Positions 6,285 to 57,110 of a stretch of 64,000 nt of DNA are shown piece after piece (the stretch's first letter is position 1; every line of letters starts with the position of its first letter). Under the pieces are notes generated by a model, which saw only the letters and a program-made list of their open reading frames with translations, was not told the origin of the DNA and did no database searches. The position numbers and the translations under genes were made by a program. Origin of the DNA: Longimonas halophila. Lineage in GTDB: Bacteria > Bacteroidota > Rhodothermia > Rhodothermales > Salinibacteraceae. The DNA lies in NCBI RefSeq assembly GCF_002554705.1, contig NZ_PDEP01000003.1:248001-312000 (forward strand), written 5' to 3'.

Positions 6285-7048
6285 GCGGCGTCGGAGTTGA
6301 TGCGAGCGGCTACGGCCTCAACGAGTGCCGGGAGGGCCTCCCCCGCAGGCGCCTGCAGGTGCACATGCGCCTTGCCCGAGACCGCACTTGTGTCCGGGTT
6401 TATATCGGCCACGTACGCGCCATGGTCGAGTGCCTCCAGCGGCAGGTCGGCAGCAGGAAAGACCACCGCGCTGGTGCCTACGCACAGAAACACATCGGCA
6501 TCGCGGGCCCAGGAACTGGCAGAAGCAATGGCATCGGGCGGCAGGCGCTCGCCGAACCAGACCACGTCGGGCCGGATGAGCTCGCCACATTCGTCGCACC
6601 GCACCGGATCGGGATCATCGTCGTTGGCCACCGACGCGTCGAGCGTGTGCGATTCGCCGCAGTCGATGCAGTAGCTGCGGATGATGTTGCCGTGTAGCTC
6701 AATTACGCGTTCGGTGCCGGCTTCCTGATGCAGGTTGTCTACGTTCTGCGTGATGCATGCAAACCGGGGTACAAGCTGCTCCAGCCGCGTTAGGGCGCGG
6801 TGCCCCGCGTTCGGTGCGGCCTCTTCGATGGCTGCCTGCCGGTAGCGATACCAGCCCTGCACGAGCGTCGGGTTGTCAAGAAACGCCTCCACGTTGGCGA
6901 GCTCCTCGGGACTAAACTGCTCCCACAGCCCATCCGGATCGCGGAAGGTGGCAATGCCGCTTTCGGCACTTGCCCCGGCCCCGGTAAGCACCGCAACCGT
7001 TTTAGCAGCAGCCAGCGCATCGACCAGTTCGTCAGGTACAGACGTCAT
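6281..7048 (-). CDS. cobB: NAD-dependent protein deacylase, sirtuin (Sir2/CobB)
   Basis: 255 aa. All sirtuin motifs are present: GAGAS at 23-27 followed by SGIATFRD, QNVD at 101-104, catalytic His119 in ELHGN, a zinc ribbon with C127, C130, C151 and C154, and GTSAVVFPA for NAD binding. WYRYR at 66-70 supplies the Tyr-x-x-Arg pair (Y67, R70) that marks class III sirtuins able to remove succinyl and malonyl groups as well as acetyl. Cytosolic. It sits between the BatD-like gene and batA, overlapping batA by 4 bp, which is not a usual position for a sirtuin and suggests co-expression with the Bat complex. Confidence 0.93.
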   Translation of the reverse strand: MTSVPDELVDALAAAKTVAVLTGAGASAESGIATFRDPDGLWEQFSPEELANVEAFLDNPTLVQGWYRYRQAAIEEAAPNAGHRALTRLEQLVPRFACITQNVDNLHQEAGTERVIELHGNIIRSYCIDCGESHTLDASVANDDDPDPVRCDECGELIRPDVVWFGERLPPDAIASASSWARDADVFLCVGTSAVVFPAADLPLEALDHGAYVADINPDTSAVSGKAHVHLQAPAGEALPALVEAVAARINSDAA

Positions 7049-39952: not shown

Positions 39953-40729
39953 ATGCCCGACAAAAATCATGGCCCTGCTGAACGCGAGGTGATCATCCTA
40001 CAGCGTCTCAAAGAGCATGGATACGTAACGGTATCGGACCTGAGCGAGCGTCTGGACGTCTCGGAGGTTACAGTTCGTAAGGATCTCCAAAAACTCGAAA
40101 GTCGCAACTTACTCCATCGCACGTATGGCGGTGCAAATGTGCGCGACCCGTACGTGCGCGATCGTCCGCTCGATGAAAAAGTTACCCAGTTCACCGAGGA
40201 AAAACGTCGTATTGGTAAGGCCGCTGCCAACTTGGTGGCCGCCCGCGACTCGATCATCCTTGCATCGGGTACGACCATGACGCAGGTGGCGCGCCATCTG
40301 CGCGACAAGTCGGAACTCACAGTGATTACCAGCGCAATGAACGTTGCGCTTGAAGTCGCTCATCTTCAGGATGTGGAGGTACTTATGCTTGGCGGCATGG
40401 TGCGCCGCACCTCAAAATCGGTGGTGGGTCCCTACGCTCAGGAGATGATGAAGGAATACGCATGCGACAAGCTCTTCCTTGGTGTCGACGGGTTTGACCT
40501 TGACCACGGCTTAACGACAGCCAATGCCCCCGAGGCTCATCTCAACCAGTATATGATTCGTGCAGCACAGCGCGTGATCATCGTAACAGACTCCAGCAAA
40601 TTCGGGCGCCGTAGCCTCCGTCGCATCTGCGGGCTTGATGCCGTGCACCGCGTCATTACTGATGCTTCTGTCGATGACCACATTGTCAGTCATCTTAAGG
40701 AGCAAGGCCTCTATGTGGATGTGGTGTAA
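39953..40729 (+). CDS. glpR: DeoR-family transcriptional regulator, GlpR-like
   Basis: 258 aa from the ATG at 39953 (MPDKNHGPAEREVIILQRLK); the frame runs upstream without homology. The N-terminal winged helix is typical (YVTVSDLSERLDVSEVTVRK, DLQKLE, LLHRTYGGA). The C-terminal sugar-phosphate sensor domain is also present (ILASGTTMTQVARHL; LGVDGFDLDHGLTTANAPEA; VTDSSKFG). Divergent from glpK. Likely represses the glycerol/DHA cluster and responds to glycerol 3-phosphate or a related phosphate. Confidence 0.88.
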   Translation: MPDKNHGPAEREVIILQRLKEHGYVTVSDLSERLDVSEVTVRKDLQKLESRNLLHRTYGGANVRDPYVRDRPLDEKVTQFTEEKRRIGKAAANLVAARDSIILASGTTMTQVARHLRDKSELTVITSAMNVALEVAHLQDVEVLMLGGMVRRTSKSVVGPYAQEMMKEYACDKLFLGVDGFDLDHGLTTANAPEAHLNQYMIRAAQRVIIVTDSSKFGRRSLRRICGLDAVHRVITDASVDDHIVSHLKEQGLYVDVV

Positions 40730-41242
40730 GGCAGAGGTCGTGTAGATCTGCTGTATGTCGTTTCATCTGCTCGCATTGAGAGCAGTACGTCACGCTTTTT
40801 CATTTTCACAGCCCCTCTACCTCACCCTATTTGTTTAATTTAAGTGAATATGCATCATATAAACTGGTGGGACACCTACACAATGGCATCACATGATGAT
40901 TATGTGCATACTCATTACATGGATTAGAGATTACGTAACACATAGGGTAATATTCACCACTTTGTGATCCGCATTCGTATCCATTCAGATGTATACCTTG
41001 GTGAATCGGGTGCGCAGATAGAGCACACCCGGTATAGCCTCCCTAACAAGGCTGCTCCGCCCCGATAGTCCTACGGCTGAGCTATTGCCACAGAGATTTT
41101 CAAAATAGTATGCACCATGAGCAGCGTTGGACAACGATAGCCATTGGGGCTTGGAAGCTTTGAAGGCGCGCCGTCTCGGTATTTAACCAGTACACTCCCT
41201 GCCTGCTCTTCACGACTTTCCGCTGCTCGAACGCGTTCTGCC
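40730..41242. other. AT-rich 513-bp intergenic region before the integrase-like gene
   Basis: No gene found. From about 40790 to 41000 the DNA is clearly lower in GC than the surroundings. It contains an 8-bp inverted repeat (GTGAATAT 40843-40850, ATATTCAC 40953-40960) and a CGGGTG/CACCCG stem (about 41008-41032). A GTTRRRY-type heptamer GTTGGAC is at 41126-41132, about 110 bp before the integrase-like start. Might be a remnant of an att/promoter region; nothing conclusive. Confidence 0.5.
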
Positions 41243-42130
41243 ATGAACTTGTCAACATCTACTGTAATGCCAGAAGCTCTTGCAGACCCTTCTCCCCACG
41301 CTCAGACATCACGCAACGAATCTTCTGAAGCACTCGCTGTACCTGCACCAGACACCGATGCGCTCTCTACGCCTGCCATCGCGCTCGCCCAACTTAACCG
41401 CGCACCTGGACTCAGCGAGCGGAAGCGCATGTTGTATGGCACCTGGATTCAAGGCTATCTTGACTATTTGAAACGCCAGTGCTTGGGAGCACCGCGCCCA
41501 GCATATGTAAAACGCTTCCTCACCCAGATTCGCGACAGTCCCCACTCCGACGAATCCACCTATCAGGGCGCGGCAGAGGCGCTGGTTTTTTATCACGAGC
41601 GTCTACTACGCCAAACCGTCTGCGGCGATGGCTATCGCCTGGCCACGCTTACCGACAAAGAAAAGCGCAAGATTGTATCGCAACTGAACGGGCCTGAGCG
41701 TGTGCTGGCCCTTGTTGTATGTTACACCGATCTGAATCTGAAAGAAGCGCTGCGCTTGCGGGTGGGGGATGTCGAAATCTCGAAGCGCACCATTCTCGTG
41801 TCGAGTTCGACGGGCTGCGCGGATCGTAGTGTCTCGTTTCCAGAGTCGCTGCAAGAGCCTCTTCGCAAGCAGCGCTCCTACGTACGCGATCTGCATGACC
41901 ATGATCTTGCAGATGGATACGGCACCGTCGACGTGCCCGACGAGGTTGTGCGCCAGTTTCCGTGGGCCTCGAAGCAGTTTGTATGGCAGTATCTCTTTCC
42001 GGCTGACAAGCGCACGCTCGATATCCGCGCAGGCACCGAGCGGCGCTACCCGATGACCCCCGATGCCCTCCTTGATGCCATCGGGTCTTCCGATGCCCCC
42101 CTCACGCGCGCCTTCCGCCCTTTACAGTGA
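41243..42130 (+). CDS. integron-integrase-like protein without catalytic residues
   Basis: 295 aa from the ATG at 41243. After a variable N-terminus (about 1-50), the N-terminal SAM-like domain aligns with IntI (YGTWIQGYLDYLKRQCLGAP; YQGAAEALVFYHERLLRQ). The catalytic-domain start aligns too (RVLALVVCYTDLNLKEALRL), as does the IntI-specific region (DLADGYGTVDVPDEVVRQFP; WASKQFVWQYLFPADKRTLD; ERRYPMTPDALLDAI). But the box I Arg is Asn165 (TDLN where IntI has TGxR) and the beta-hairpin Lys is lost (STGCADR for GKGSKDR). The frame stops before the HxxR, His and Tyr elements. It is therefore unlikely to recombine DNA; it may bind DNA or be decaying. Confidence 0.82.
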   Translation: MNLSTSTVMPEALADPSPHAQTSRNESSEALAVPAPDTDALSTPAIALAQLNRAPGLSERKRMLYGTWIQGYLDYLKRQCLGAPRPAYVKRFLTQIRDSPHSDESTYQGAAEALVFYHERLLRQTVCGDGYRLATLTDKEKRKIVSQLNGPERVLALVVCYTDLNLKEALRLRVGDVEISKRTILVSSSTGCADRSVSFPESLQEPLRKQRSYVRDLHDHDLADGYGTVDVPDEVVRQFPWASKQFVWQYLFPADKRTLDIRAGTERRYPMTPDALLDAIGSSDAPLTRAFRPLQ

Positions 42131-53936: not shown

Positions 53937-54194
53937 GGCAGAACGGGGGCAGATCAGAGGATGCGAAGGACGTACGCAAGATAGAAGGCACTTCGGTAGA
54001 ATGCGACGTGCAGGCCACAGTACCCCAATGATCCGTCGATGAAGATCGCCAGCTTTCGTGTTCTCACACGCACATAACAGGCTCGTTGCACGCTTCGGCG
54101 TAACGCAACGGGGGGGCGGCGTACAAAGAAAGTGCGCATGCGAGAGACCTCGCGGCGTGCTTCGTATTCTACACACCGATACGACCTTCCTGAT

Positions 54195-54707
54195 ATGGCA
54201 ACCTCCACTGTAGACCGTGCCGACGCCGTTCGCGACGCGGCTAAAGACGCGTTTGGCTTCGTTCCGAATCTCATCGACGAACTGGCATCAGAGAACCCCG
54301 CCGTTGCCGAGACCTACCTGAAAGCCAACGGCCACCTGAGCAACGGCGTGCTCAGTCCCGCCGAGCAGCAGCTTGTCATCCTTACGATTTCGGGATACAA
54401 CGACTGCCACTACTGCACCAAAGCCCACGGTGCTGCCGGTGCACAAGCCGGACTCGACGCCGATGTGATCGAAGAACTGGTGGACGGCGGCCTGCCCAGC
54501 GAAGGGCGACAGCGCCTGCTGGCCCGGGCTACCAAGCGCCTCTTGGGCAAGCGCGGCTGGCTCAGCGACGAAGACCGCGCCGAGTTCGAAGAGGCCGGCC
54601 TCACCACAGCGGAACTGTACGAAATCGTGGGCCTGATCGGCGTAAAAACAATCAGCAACTACGTGAACCACCTGGCCGGAACGCCGGTTGACCCGCAGTT
54701 TCAGTAA
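54195..54707 (+). CDS. AhpD-like/carboxymuconolactone decarboxylase family protein
   Basis: 170 aa from the ATG at 54195 (MATSTVDRADAVRDAAKDAF). The redox motif C71-H-Y-C74 with H78 (NDCHYCTKAHGAA) is that of AhpD-type peroxidase-related proteins. LSPAEQQLVILTISGYND before it and ELYEIVGLIGVKTISNYVNH after it fit the CMD fold. Expected role: thiol-based peroxide defence or reductase. Transcribed toward the first 64-bp terminator repeat. Confidence 0.88.
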   Translation: MATSTVDRADAVRDAAKDAFGFVPNLIDELASENPAVAETYLKANGHLSNGVLSPAEQQLVILTISGYNDCHYCTKAHGAAGAQAGLDADVIEELVDGGLPSEGRQRLLARATKRLLGKRGWLSDEDRAEFEEAGLTTAELYEIVGLIGVKTISNYVNHLAGTPVDPQFQ

Positions 54708-54780
54708 AGAGCTATCTGCAACGCAGGATCAAGTAGAAACAACGTCCTGAATCCTCGTCGTCTCTATCCTGCCCACCATC

Positions 54781-54844
54781 GCAGAGACGACGACAGCGCC
54801 CCATGCAGCGCGCCCGTACGCGTCGCTGTGTGGGGCGTTTTTTT
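54781..54844 (+). repeat. 64-bp direct repeat 1, containing a terminator
   Basis: Contains a hairpin (CGCCCCATGCAGCG 54797-54810 with CGCTGTGTGGGGCG 54824-54837, two mismatches) and a T7 run: the natural terminator of the AhpD-like gene. It is repeated at 55771-55834 with 61 of 64 bases identical (differences at offsets 15, 43 and 58). Confidence 0.88.
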
Positions 54845-54873
54845 GTTAGACGACGTGTCGTGCTGTAATGTAG

Positions 54874-55029
54874 GGAAGCCGGTTTGAACCTCGATTAGGT
54901 GGTTACCATACCTTCTCGGGTGCTAACATCACGACATATCTGGAAAACAGCGGACAATTAGAAACAGCGCAGCATATCGCCAAGCATGATTCAGCCACCA
55001 CAACGAAACTGTACGACTGGCATAACTAA
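54874..55029 (+). pseudogene. C-terminal remnant of a tyrosine recombinase
   Basis: An open frame with no start codon of its own ends at TAA 55027-55029. It reads HTFSGANITTYLENS, then GQLETAQHIAKHDSATTTKL, then YDWHN. This is the C-terminal box of integrases that typically read HTFRATGITAYLENGG...HESPRTTKLYD. The box II His is at 54907, its Arg is Ser here, the second His is present (AKHD) and the catalytic Tyr is in KLYD. Everything upstream of the box is gone. It lies 30 bp inside direct repeat 1, directly before the orphan gene, and marks a decayed integrated element. Confidence 0.85.
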
Positions 55030-55062
55030 CGCACGTAGCAAGAAAAAAGAGCACATTCAGAT

Positions 55063-55719
55063 ATGAGTGATGATCCTTCAGCAGTCAATGAGCAGAGTAT
55101 CATCCTTTACAATCAAGAGGTGCCTCAAGATGTACGCTCTAAACTTGAAGATGAATTAAGAGACACGATACACGTAGATCGTTCTCAAACGATCTACATG
55201 ATGTCGCAAACTGTGCCCGAGTTGGTTCAAATTGTCTTGGATGCAGTAACTTGGAAGAATGGACTCGGGACGGCTGCAGCCATTTTCTTTAAGTCATATT
55301 TAGAAAAGATAGGCAGTATAGCAGCTGAATCGAGTTGGAAACAAAGCAGCGCTATTGCAAAAGTTCTGAAAGAAAACTCTGTCGAAGCAATAGAAAGCTT
55401 TGTTGATGCAATTATAGGAGCCAAGAAATCTCTTTCCCCTAACTGTCGGTTCATGATCGGTTTACCGTATCCCGAAGGCTATCGTGGGACATTACTGCGA
55501 ATAGAAGCTGACAACAGAGAAGAAATCGCAATAGTTTTGGCTCTGTTCGTTGCACAAGTACAAAGGATTCAAGACCGGCTCTCAGAAGAGGTTGACGAAG
55601 AGAATGTCGCAGTTGGTATTAGCCTCAAATTAAACGAAGATGGAGATTTCGTCGCTACTTGGTATGATCGTGAACAGCAGTATCACGAGATAATGATATC
55701 AAACTCGTTGATGAAATAG
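55063..55719 (+). CDS. AT-rich orphan gene inside the terminator-flanked island
   Basis: 218 aa. Base and codon use (many AAA, GAA, AAT, ATA) differ sharply from the GC-rich surroundings, a sign of recent transfer. The protein is acidic and soluble or peripherally membrane-associated. A helical first half (RSKLEDELRDTIHVDR; ELVQIVLDAVTWKNG) includes a moderately hydrophobic stretch (LGTAAAIFFKSYLEKIGSIA). A C-terminal strand region follows (AVGISLKLNEDGDFVATWYD). I recognise no family. It is the only intact cargo between the two 64-bp repeats, and the second repeat supplies its terminator. Confidence 0.85.
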   Translation: MSDDPSAVNEQSIILYNQEVPQDVRSKLEDELRDTIHVDRSQTIYMMSQTVPELVQIVLDAVTWKNGLGTAAAIFFKSYLEKIGSIAAESSWKQSSAIAKVLKENSVEAIESFVDAIIGAKKSLSPNCRFMIGLPYPEGYRGTLLRIEADNREEIAIVLALFVAQVQRIQDRLSEEVDEENVAVGISLKLNEDGDFVATWYDREQQYHEIMISNSLMK

Positions 55720-55770
55720 CGAGCCAAATCTCGTAGGAGAGTCCATCTACTCGTATGTCGGCTCAGCCAG

Positions 55771-55834
55771 GCAGAGACGACGACTGCGCCCCATGCAGCG
55801 CGCCCGTACGCGGCGCTGTGTGGGGCGCTTTTTT
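55771..55834 (+). repeat. 64-bp direct repeat 2, containing a terminator
   Basis: Near-identical copy (61 of 64) of 54781-54844, including the hairpin and T-run. It ends transcription of the orphan gene. The copies are 990 bp apart, start to start, and bound the recombinase remnant and the orphan gene. Confidence 0.88.
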
Positions 55835-55877
55835 GATTTGAAGAGATGCTGCACCGTGCAGTTGGTCCACCGTGCTG

Positions 55878-56225
55878 CTATGCCCAATCGATAGCGGCCT
55901 CGTTCAGGATGCCATCCAGCTCAATCATGGTGGCGGCCCCGCCAATGAGTGTGGCCAGGGCGCGCATCTCGTCGGTGTTGAGGACGAGGACGGGCTGCTT
56001 GGTGCATGGCACGCGCAGTTGCCAGCGACAGCCGCTGGAGCATTCGCATCCGGCCACCGACCCCGACAACGCATGCAGCTTCTGGTGCACCTGCTGCAGG
56101 CCCTCGGTGCTCATGGCCAGCTGCACATCATCGAACGTGACGTGCACGTGACCCTCGTCGGCGTAGGCCACATGGCCGCGCTCGGTTTCGAAAAGCGTAG
56201 ACGTGTCAAACGAAGCGGACTGCAT
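55878..56225 (-). CDS. small Cys-rich hypothetical protein
   Basis: 115 aa, no signal peptide or membrane segment. Two alpha/beta-looking halves (ERGHVAYADEGHVHVTFDDV; VLVLNTDEMRALATLIGGAA) flank a cysteine cluster (AGCECSSGCRWQLRVPCTK) with four Cys that may bind a metal. The layout resembles small DUF6686-like proteins of Bacteroidota, but the match is uncertain. Stands alone beside the island; convergent with its second terminator repeat. Confidence 0.6.
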   Translation of the reverse strand: MQSASFDTSTLFETERGHVAYADEGHVHVTFDDVQLAMSTEGLQQVHQKLHALSGSVAGCECSSGCRWQLRVPCTKQPVLVLNTDEMRALATLIGGAATMIELDGILNEAAIDWA

Positions 56226-56396
56226 AACGCGCTAAAGGTACGTTGGAGCGGACAAAGACGCACCTATTTAGATCGAGTCCAAACTTGCAAGGTTTCATGA
56301 CCTTCGCTTCCCCCTTAACAATGTTTTGTGAACCCGCTATCAACAACAGCGCGCCCGCAGCTATTCCGCTACGAGCGCGTGTCTATTCTACGCAAC

Positions 56397-56443
56397 GACG
56401 CAGGAGCGTCCTTGTCTACACGTCCGACGGGGGACCGTCGGAC
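56397..56443. repeat. paired hairpin repeat
   Basis: GACGCAGGAGCGTC (56397-56410) and GTCCGACGGGGGACCGTCGGAC (56422-56443, 22 bp) are two perfect hairpins in the same order and spacing as those in the repeats at 28757-28806. The rest of the 312-bp gap 56226-56537 shows nothing definable. Confidence 0.7.
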
Positions 56444-56537
56444 GCAGATGATGTTTGTGGTTGTCTGTCAATCAGGCACAATTGCGTAGCAGCGAACCCA
56501 CTACCCGTTTCTGTACGGATACAACGCACGGAGGCAT

Positions 56538-57110
56538 CTATTCTTGCACCGTCAAGTCGATGAGGGCAGTGTCGTCGTCGGAGTGATTGTCGTGCCAGAG
56601 CAGGAAGCGCACCTGCGTGGTCCCGGCGCTCTGCGGATACACATGCACGTGGTCGCCGTGGAAGAGCTCGCCTTCCTCGCCATACAGCGCCGCGGCCTCG
56701 CCCTCAAATTCGATTTCGCCGGAGCTGTCGAAAAAGATCACATCTTGGGGGGCAGCATTGTCGACGGCGTATTGCGCTTCAAACTCGCCGCCTTCTTCGA
56801 GCGTGATTTCATCGCCGTCCTCATCGAACATGCGGATGGTCCACACGGGGTGGTCGCCACCGTCATCGAGCGGAACAGTGAGTTCGTCGACGTTCCAGCC
56901 GTCTTCGTCGGTCCAGGTGGCTATAGGCGTGCCCGTACCATCGCGGGTTTCGAGTTCGACACGGTCGATTCGGAGCAACTCGCCATCGTGATCGTCGTGG
57001 TCATCATCGTCGTCGCTGCCGACAATAGAGTCGCAAGCGCTGCCTACAATAAGAAGTAGGGCCAGCGCCAGCAGCGATCCGAGTTTTGCTAACGGTGTGT
57101 TCGTTTTCAT
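56538..57110 (-). CDS. Asp/His-rich lipoprotein linked to TonB receptors
   Basis: 190 aa. Lipobox GSAC (Cys26), followed by a striking acidic and His tract (DSIVGSDDDDDHDDHDGELL) that could bind divalent metal. The rest is an acidic beta-rich domain (RVELETRDGTGTPIATWTDE; VWTIRMFDEDGDEITLEEGG) with a second His cluster (LFHGDHVHVYPQSAG; LLWHDNHSDDD). It is 34 bp downstream of a TonB-dependent receptor gene and presumably works with it at the outer membrane. Metal binding is an inference from composition. Confidence 0.8.
   Translation of the reverse strand: MKTNTPLAKLGSLLALALLLIVGSACDSIVGSDDDDDHDDHDGELLRIDRVELETRDGTGTPIATWTDEDGWNVDELTVPLDDGGDHPVWTIRMFDEDGDEITLEEGGEFEAQYAVDNAAPQDVIFFDSSGEIEFEGEAAALYGEEGELFHGDHVHVYPQSAGTTQVRFLLWHDNHSDDDTALIDLTVQE

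What the first reader, a model, noticed from the sequence alone, without database searches (positions are those of the whole stretch)
54781..55834. About 1-kb island bounded by 64-bp terminator direct repeats, with a recombinase tail and an AT-rich orphan gene
Two near-identical terminators (61/64 bases) lie 990 bp apart in direct orientation. Between them are the C-terminal box of a tyrosine recombinase (HTFS...KLYD) and one intact gene whose composition is foreign to the region. The first repeat is the terminator of the AhpD-like gene. The layout fits an element that integrated at a rho-independent terminator and regenerated it at the other end, then lost most of its integrase. Terminators as attachment sites are uncommon, and the cargo has no recognisable family.
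Basis: partly seen in the sequence, partly recalled or inferred. Interest (0 to 1): 0.8.

Follow-up and report, generated by a model that had tools for sequence, protein, structure and literature searches.

The report
Foreign gene wedged between duplicated terminators
In this bacterium a foreign-looking 1-kb stretch holding one intact gene and a broken recombinase sits between two near-identical copies of a predicted gene-end stop signal where a close relative has only one; it likely arrived on a plasmid-like element, is probably stuck there now, and looks like a mildly unusual case of ordinary gene acquisition.

Summary
The repeats (54781-54845, 55771-55835) are 62/65 identical and are the only two copies found in the own assembly. 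The one same-genus relative available has the same gene order with one terminator and no insert. The enclosed DNA is the most AT-rich of the window (cargo GC 0.42 against 0.616). The 218-aa cargo belongs to a tiny unnamed family: three other members, on short contigs, none confirmed in any genome searched. The recombinase remnant is cut at both ends and has lost a catalytic arginine. Its clade occurs mainly on plasmids (253 plasmid against 3 phage records), and its genes tend to lie near a dif-like ATAA-N6-TTAT palindrome; none was found in the window. So nothing shows that this enzyme recognised the terminator. I favour a plasmid-like circle, carrying a related lineage's AhpD 3' end and terminator, that recombined into the chromosomal terminator and then shrank. 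Terminator-specific integration by a lost enzyme is the main rival. No close relative of the recombinase is left in the assembly, so the insert is predicted to be immobile.

The parts
54192..54707 (+). AhpD-like (carboxymuconolactone decarboxylase family) gene whose terminator is duplicated
   Evidence: Pfam CMD E 1.7e-10; 97% identical protein in the relative L032
54755..54793 (.). 11-bp perfect inverted repeat (54755-54765 with 54783-54793) spanning the left edge of the first repeat; read as native host sequence
   Evidence: read directly; a 7-bp counterpart is read in the relative; absent before the second repeat
54781..54845 (+). first terminator repeat (L)
54874..55029 (+). tyrosine recombinase remnant: open frame of 51 codons; similarity to intact enzymes about 54883-55017; both ends missing, HxxR reads HTFS
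55063..55719 (+). 218-aa cargo gene, GC 0.42, small unnamed family
55720..55770 (.). stretch before the second repeat; its end resembles the flank of the relative's single terminator (inferred second version of the AhpD 3' region)
   Evidence: R against relative, last 20 bases: 1 of 2000 shuffles as good; last 60: 1 of 2000
55771..55835 (+). second terminator repeat (R)
   Evidence: flank to its right matches the relative
55878..56225 (-). convergent 115-aa ORF on the far side, colinear with the relative

Best explanation
This is an insertion of about 1 kb of AT-rich DNA behind an AhpD-like gene, flanked by two 95%-identical predicted terminator copies where a same-genus relative has one, and it was likely left by a plasmid-like circle that recombined into that terminator and then shrank. 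Shown: the insertion relative to one genome, the two copies, the foreign composition, the broken recombinase of a mainly plasmid-borne clade, and the intact cargo ORF. Inferred: the circle carried a related lineage's AhpD 3' flank plus terminator; a single crossover within the shared terminator would leave one host-element hybrid copy at each end, so that the AhpD gene would still be terminated by the left copy and the cargo by the right one; later deletions would have removed the replication genes and most of the recombinase. Predicted: the insert cannot excise by an enzyme of its own, and RecA-dependent loss between the 65-bp repeats would be rare. What the cargo does is not settled; my weak guess is an accessory function of a plasmid or other mobile element.
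For: One terminator and no insert at the colinear locus of the relative. Right of R is host (0 of 2000 shuffles), right of L is not (397 of 2000); the last 40 bases left of L resemble the relative (7 of 2000) and so do the last 20 left of R (1 of 2000), while L and R flanks do not resemble each other (258-301 of 2000), as expected if R's left flank is a second version of the same region brought by the insert. Recombinase clade: 253 plasmid against 3 phage records; the remnant alone 128 against 3. Among the fetched plasmid loci some hold ParA, partition or toxin-antitoxin genes beside the recombinase. Only 30% and 28% identical recombinases in the own genome. AT-rich cargo.
Against: No replication, partition or transfer gene is left in the insert. 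No plasmid record carries the cargo (query P0004), the insert or the terminator region. The closest recombinases (82% over 38 aa in G055; G071, G074) are in draft genomes whose contigs I did not show to be plasmids, and the three phage records match the remnant at 62%, as well as the best plasmids do. A 65-bp (at most about 115-bp) homology is short for RecA. The flank tests could also be read as breakpoints about 20 bp upstream of both copies: L's last 20 bases do not resemble the relative (448 of 2000), in which case the crossover was not in the terminator. The empty-site comparison does not tell which copy is older (146 against 147 matches).
Confidence: 0.45

Rival explanations
1. A site-specific integrative element used the terminator itself as its attachment site; the 65-bp repeats are its left and right attachment sites, and the enzyme that did it, not necessarily the one whose tail remains, is lost.
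For: Sharp 65-bp near-identity, only two copies, empty site in the relative, recombinase remnant close to the left repeat. A precedent is proposed in Neisseriaceae, where an ICE's attP seems adapted to DNA uptake sequences that pair up as terminators (PMC7371117, passages).
Against: The remnant's clade is mainly plasmid-borne and tends to lie near dif-like palindromes; none of the direct repeats listed for five intact loci flanks the recombinase gene (repeats of 24 bases or more; 5 of 6 families shown for L139). Of seven intact loci, a hairpin-plus-T-run lies within 320 bases downstream in two, one strong and one weak, so terminators next to these genes are not the rule but not absent either.
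Confidence: 0.3
2. Foreign DNA entered by one-sided recombination: homology at the terminator at one end, an illegitimate join at the other, or template switching during repair that copied the terminator twice.
For: The left breakpoint can be read about 20 bp upstream of L (L's last 20 bases: 448 of 2000 shuffles as good; last 40: 7 of 2000). The process is described, also in E. coli during conjugation at 3x10^-10 per recipient (PMC3240628, abstract).
Against: It does not by itself explain two near-identical 65-bp copies in direct orientation; it leaves the recombinase remnant as coincidence.
Confidence: 0.17
3. Assembly error: a chimeric contig or a falsely doubled terminator.
For: Single draft assembly; the contig was not checked with reads.
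Against: Outer flanks are colinear with the relative on both sides; the copies differ at three positions and share no exact run longer than 27 bases (positions).
Confidence: 0.04

Closest known systems
Decayed integrative element / genomic islet bounded by direct repeats
   Same: Foreign composition, direct repeats at both ends, recombinase remnant near one end, empty site in a relative
   Different: Repeats are an intrinsic terminator; the recombinase remnant belongs to a mainly plasmid-borne clade with another kind of site nearby
Xer-like tyrosine recombinases linked to a dif-like site (XerS/difSL, XerH/difH; PMC2731167 and PMC3325230, listings and abstract starts)
   Same: The remnant's clade scores as XerC/XerD-like (NCBIfam, below cut-offs), and many of its genes lie near a palindromic 11-6-11 site
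   Different: Here only a catalytically dead fragment and no site
Neisserial ICE with a terminator-like DNA uptake sequence as attachment site (PMC7371117, passages)
   Same: Insertion at an inverted repeat at a transcription end
   Different: There an element with an intact attP was shown by PCR; here no intact integrase and no excision test
Integron gene cassette
   Same: One gene plus a structured repeat, about 1 kb per unit
   Different: No integron integrase in the insert, no array, hairpin is a plain terminator

Membership tests
Integrative element with attL/attR | Near-identical direct repeats at both ends | tested here: met
   62/65, only two copies
Integrative element with attL/attR | Empty site with one copy in a relative | tested here: met
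   One relative, L032; n = 1, G001 is probably the same assembly
Integrative element with attL/attR | Intact integrase inside | tested here: not met
   51-codon remnant, HTFS in place of HxxR, both ends missing (motif recalled)
Integrative element with attL/attR | The repeat is the recognition site of the element's own recombinase | tested here: inconclusive
   Clade genes tend to lie near dif-like palindromes instead; no biochemical test
Integrative element with attL/attR | Precise excision as a circle | not testable with these tools
   Needs DNA of the organism or reads
Plasmid-type tyrosine recombinase | Sequence membership of the remnant in the clade | tested here: met
   Tail 82% to G055 over 38 aa; 128 plasmid records at E <= 1e-3
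Plasmid-type tyrosine recombinase | dif-like palindrome near the gene | tested here: not met
   GATAA-N6-TTATC with up to 1 mismatch: 0 in the window; no ATAA-N6-TTAT palindrome in 54500-56000
Integron gene cassette | Integron integrase close by | tested here: not met
   Only the remnant lies inside; its intact relative scores 44.1 bits on TIGR02249 against a cut-off of 265; the rest of the genome was not searched for one
Integron gene cassette | attC-type core GTTRRRY at the repeat edge (recalled) | tested here: inconclusive
   L runs on as G/TTAGAC, which fits; R as G/ATTTGA, which does not
pdif module | dif-like sites at both ends | tested here: not met
Terminator-targeting group II intron or insertion sequence | Intron RNA, reverse transcriptase or transposase inside the insert | tested here: not met
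   Only the remnant and a cargo without Pfam match; 0 Rfam matches at E <= 1 in 54000-57000

The most novel reading that the evidence does not exclude
Gene-plus-terminator units are a mobile cassette type of their own: intrinsic terminators serve as the recombination sites, and single orphan genes such as this 218-aa family are dropped in behind host genes as terminator-bounded cassettes, mobilised by an enzyme supplied in trans.
Probability: 0.06. Interest if true: 0.8.

Novelty: new member of a known kind. Interest (0 to 1): 0.3.

Why it matters
If terminators serve as landing sites, foreign genes can be added behind host genes without breaking anything and come with a stop signal of their own. 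This locus is a small, clean case: one relative with an empty site, one cargo, two repeats. It also warns that a recombinase tail beside a repeat is not proof of site-specific integration: here the tail belongs to a mainly plasmid-borne clade whose genes tend to lie near dif-like palindromes. The cargo is a small protein family that no library used here names.

Tried and rejected
Dispersed repeat: rejected, 2 real copies among 27 rows in the own genome. The 65-bp unit searched in 27 genomes of the family: besides the own genome only short matches in G075 (27 query bases) and G072 (21), and no hit in the same-genus genome G001, whose terminator is too diverged for that search and was found by position and alignment instead.

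Cargo in genomes: own only among 395 of the phylum; in 244 of the class one further weak match with a stop inside (G531, E 9.2e-4), not counted as a relative; in 114 of the order, with P0002, four weak matches at E 0.013-0.09. No relative in IMG/VR, phages with P0002, plasmids with P0004; no DNA match of the insert or the terminator region in plasmids; no terminator match in IMG/VR for a pattern covering L, R and the relative.

Protein libraries for the cargo family: Pfam none for the cargo and P0002, DUF2262 at E 0.083 for P0003; best NCBIfam E 0.043, PADLOC none, best PHROG E 0.11; PDB sequences best E 0.88.

Empty sites for related intact recombinases: not obtained. G055's region gave only short matches in 3 of 5 genomes and none in its genus mate; for G071 all 13 genomes of the genus matched, by my reading through paralogous genes at about 70%.

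The idea that the 980-base contig of P0001 reflects assembly breaks at the repeats was dropped: the repeats share no exact run longer than 27 bases.

Full report
What is there. The two repeats are real: 54781-54845 and 55771-55835, 62 of 65 bases identical, 990 apart. Each folds as a strong terminator-like hairpin with a T run. In the own genome (3.73 Mb, 35 contigs, 92.4% complete) the search listed 27 rows; 2 are the repeats, the other 25 match 26 query bases or fewer at E 0.26 or worse. Between them lie the remnant of a tyrosine recombinase (open frame 54874-55029) and one intact 218-aa ORF (55063-55719). The ORF has GC 0.42 (third codon position 0.39), against 0.616 for the window and 0.73 at the third position of the AhpD-like gene; the lowest-GC 650-base windows of the 64 kb are here.

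Empty site. The closest relative, a MAG contig titled uncultured Rhodothermaceae bacterium (CAJXLX010000055.1, L032), encodes the AhpD-like protein at 97% and is colinear on both sides: window 54061-54710 matches L032 5869-6519, and window 55756-58913 matches L032 6715-9885. Between these the relative has 195 bases, with one terminator at 6730-6792 and no insert. The same-genus genome G001 gives the same alignment values (L030) and is probably the same assembly, so this is one relative, not two. Neither the remnant nor the cargo was found in G001.

Breakpoints. To the right of R the sequence is host (0 of 2000 mononucleotide shuffles as similar to the relative); to the right of L it is not (397 of 2000). 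To the left, R's last 20 bases match the relative (1 of 2000) and so do its last 40 and 60 (6 and 1). L's last 20 do not (448), its last 40 and 60 do (7 and 9). L and R do not match each other there (258-301) (nine left-side comparisons, uncorrected). L carries an 11-bp perfect inverted repeat (54755-54765 with 54783-54793) that has a 7-bp counterpart in the relative and none before R (read). I read L's flank as native and R's flank as a second version of the same AhpD 3' region, brought by the insert. The other reading, breakpoints about 20 bp left of both copies, is not excluded. L and R are closer to each other (62/65) than to the relative (53/65 and 54/65), so the duplication is young or has been homogenised.

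The recombinase. The 44-aa tail finds recombinases in 11 of 114 genomes of the order at E <= 0.001, own genome included; the best other match is 82% over 38 aa in G055. The remnant's frame opens mid-protein, its HxxR box reads HTFS, and after KLYD it ends in WHN and a stop where intact relatives run on for 16 residues (motif recalled). An intact relative finds 253 of 72,556 plasmid records and 3 of 50,697 phage records at E <= 1e-20; the remnant alone finds 128 and 3 at E <= 1e-3. The three phage records match the remnant at 62%, as well as the best plasmids do. I fetched 12 plasmid loci, 11 from the rows and one. In 8 of 12 a near-perfect 28-bp palindrome with the centre ATAA-N6-TTAT lies within 1.5 kb upstream of the gene; L187 has one 1.7 kb upstream, L190 one with weaker arms, L191 and L193 none. 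Shuffles give 6.1 palindromes of any centre for the 12 loci together against 17 seen, so the shared centre is the telling feature. Of six chromosomal members two have a clear one (G071 C123, perfect; G071 C92), two a weaker one (G022, G055), G074 only the centre, G047 none. This resembles Xer-like enzymes linked to a dif-like site. No such site was found in the window. The remnant therefore points to a plasmid-type source, not to an integrase acting on a terminator; its closest relatives, though, lie on draft contigs whose nature I did not establish. In the own genome the nearest enzymes are 30% and 28% identical.

The cargo. The protein searches gave four members: P0001 (100% in the table, one residue different when read), P0002 (59%), P0003 (50%) and P0004 (45%); the last three bear the source tag lgn, which I take to be Logan assemblies (recalled), on contigs of 1,038-1,471 bases. 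Even length and shared blocks such as YNQEV, VPEL, IGLP and GTLL argue for a real protein family under constraint. No library names it and no confident structure was predicted. Promoter-like sites around the locus do not exceed chance (2 against 1.8).

Mechanism. The best-supported account is a plasmid-like circle that carried a related lineage's AhpD 3' flank and terminator, recombined with the chromosomal terminator and was then eroded. Shown: insertion relative to one genome, duplication, foreign composition, plasmid-type remnant. Inferred: the circle, the crossover, the deletions. Terminator-specific integration by a lost enzyme is the main rival; a related idea is proposed for a neisserial ICE (PMC7371117, passages). 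One-sided illegitimate recombination is the third (PMC3240628, abstract).

Literature. The listings of paper searches showed no paper on a terminator-bounded single-gene insert in this group; each listing was read only as far as shown and the library holds open-licence papers only, so this is not proof of absence. SGI1's second attachment site lies in the sodB-purR intergenic region (PMC2297512, passages); the word terminator does not occur in that paper.

Noticed in passing
plasmid loci L185, L186, L188, L189, L192, L194, L195, L196; genome loci L137, L138, L119, L136: A mainly plasmid-borne tyrosine recombinase clade tends to have a dif-like palindrome (11-bp arms, centre ATAA-N6-TTAT) upstream of its gene; it looks like a self-contained single-recombinase resolution system.
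   Followed up: partly
L205 (own genome C1:513500-519000): Another Xer-like recombinase of this genome (371-aa ORF, 30% to the clade) has a near-palindromic ATAA-N6-TTAT site just upstream.
   Followed up: no
window 55172-55199: A 28-bp near-perfect palindrome (11-6-11, one mismatch, centre not ATAA/TTAT) lies inside the cargo ORF.
   Followed up: no
window 40301-41400: Second most AT-rich stretch of the window (650-base windows at GC 0.47-0.50), possibly another acquired segment.
   Followed up: no
L136:17262-17439: G055 seems to carry a second, partial copy of its recombinase gene about 7 kb from the intact one (repeats of 88-90%), so pieces of this gene may be left behind elsewhere too.
   Followed up: no
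L032:6540-6610: The relative's AhpD 3' region holds about 140 extra bases, including a TGTCATTTTGAGC...AAAAATCTCC stretch that looks like a dispersed repeat (impression by eye).
   Followed up: no
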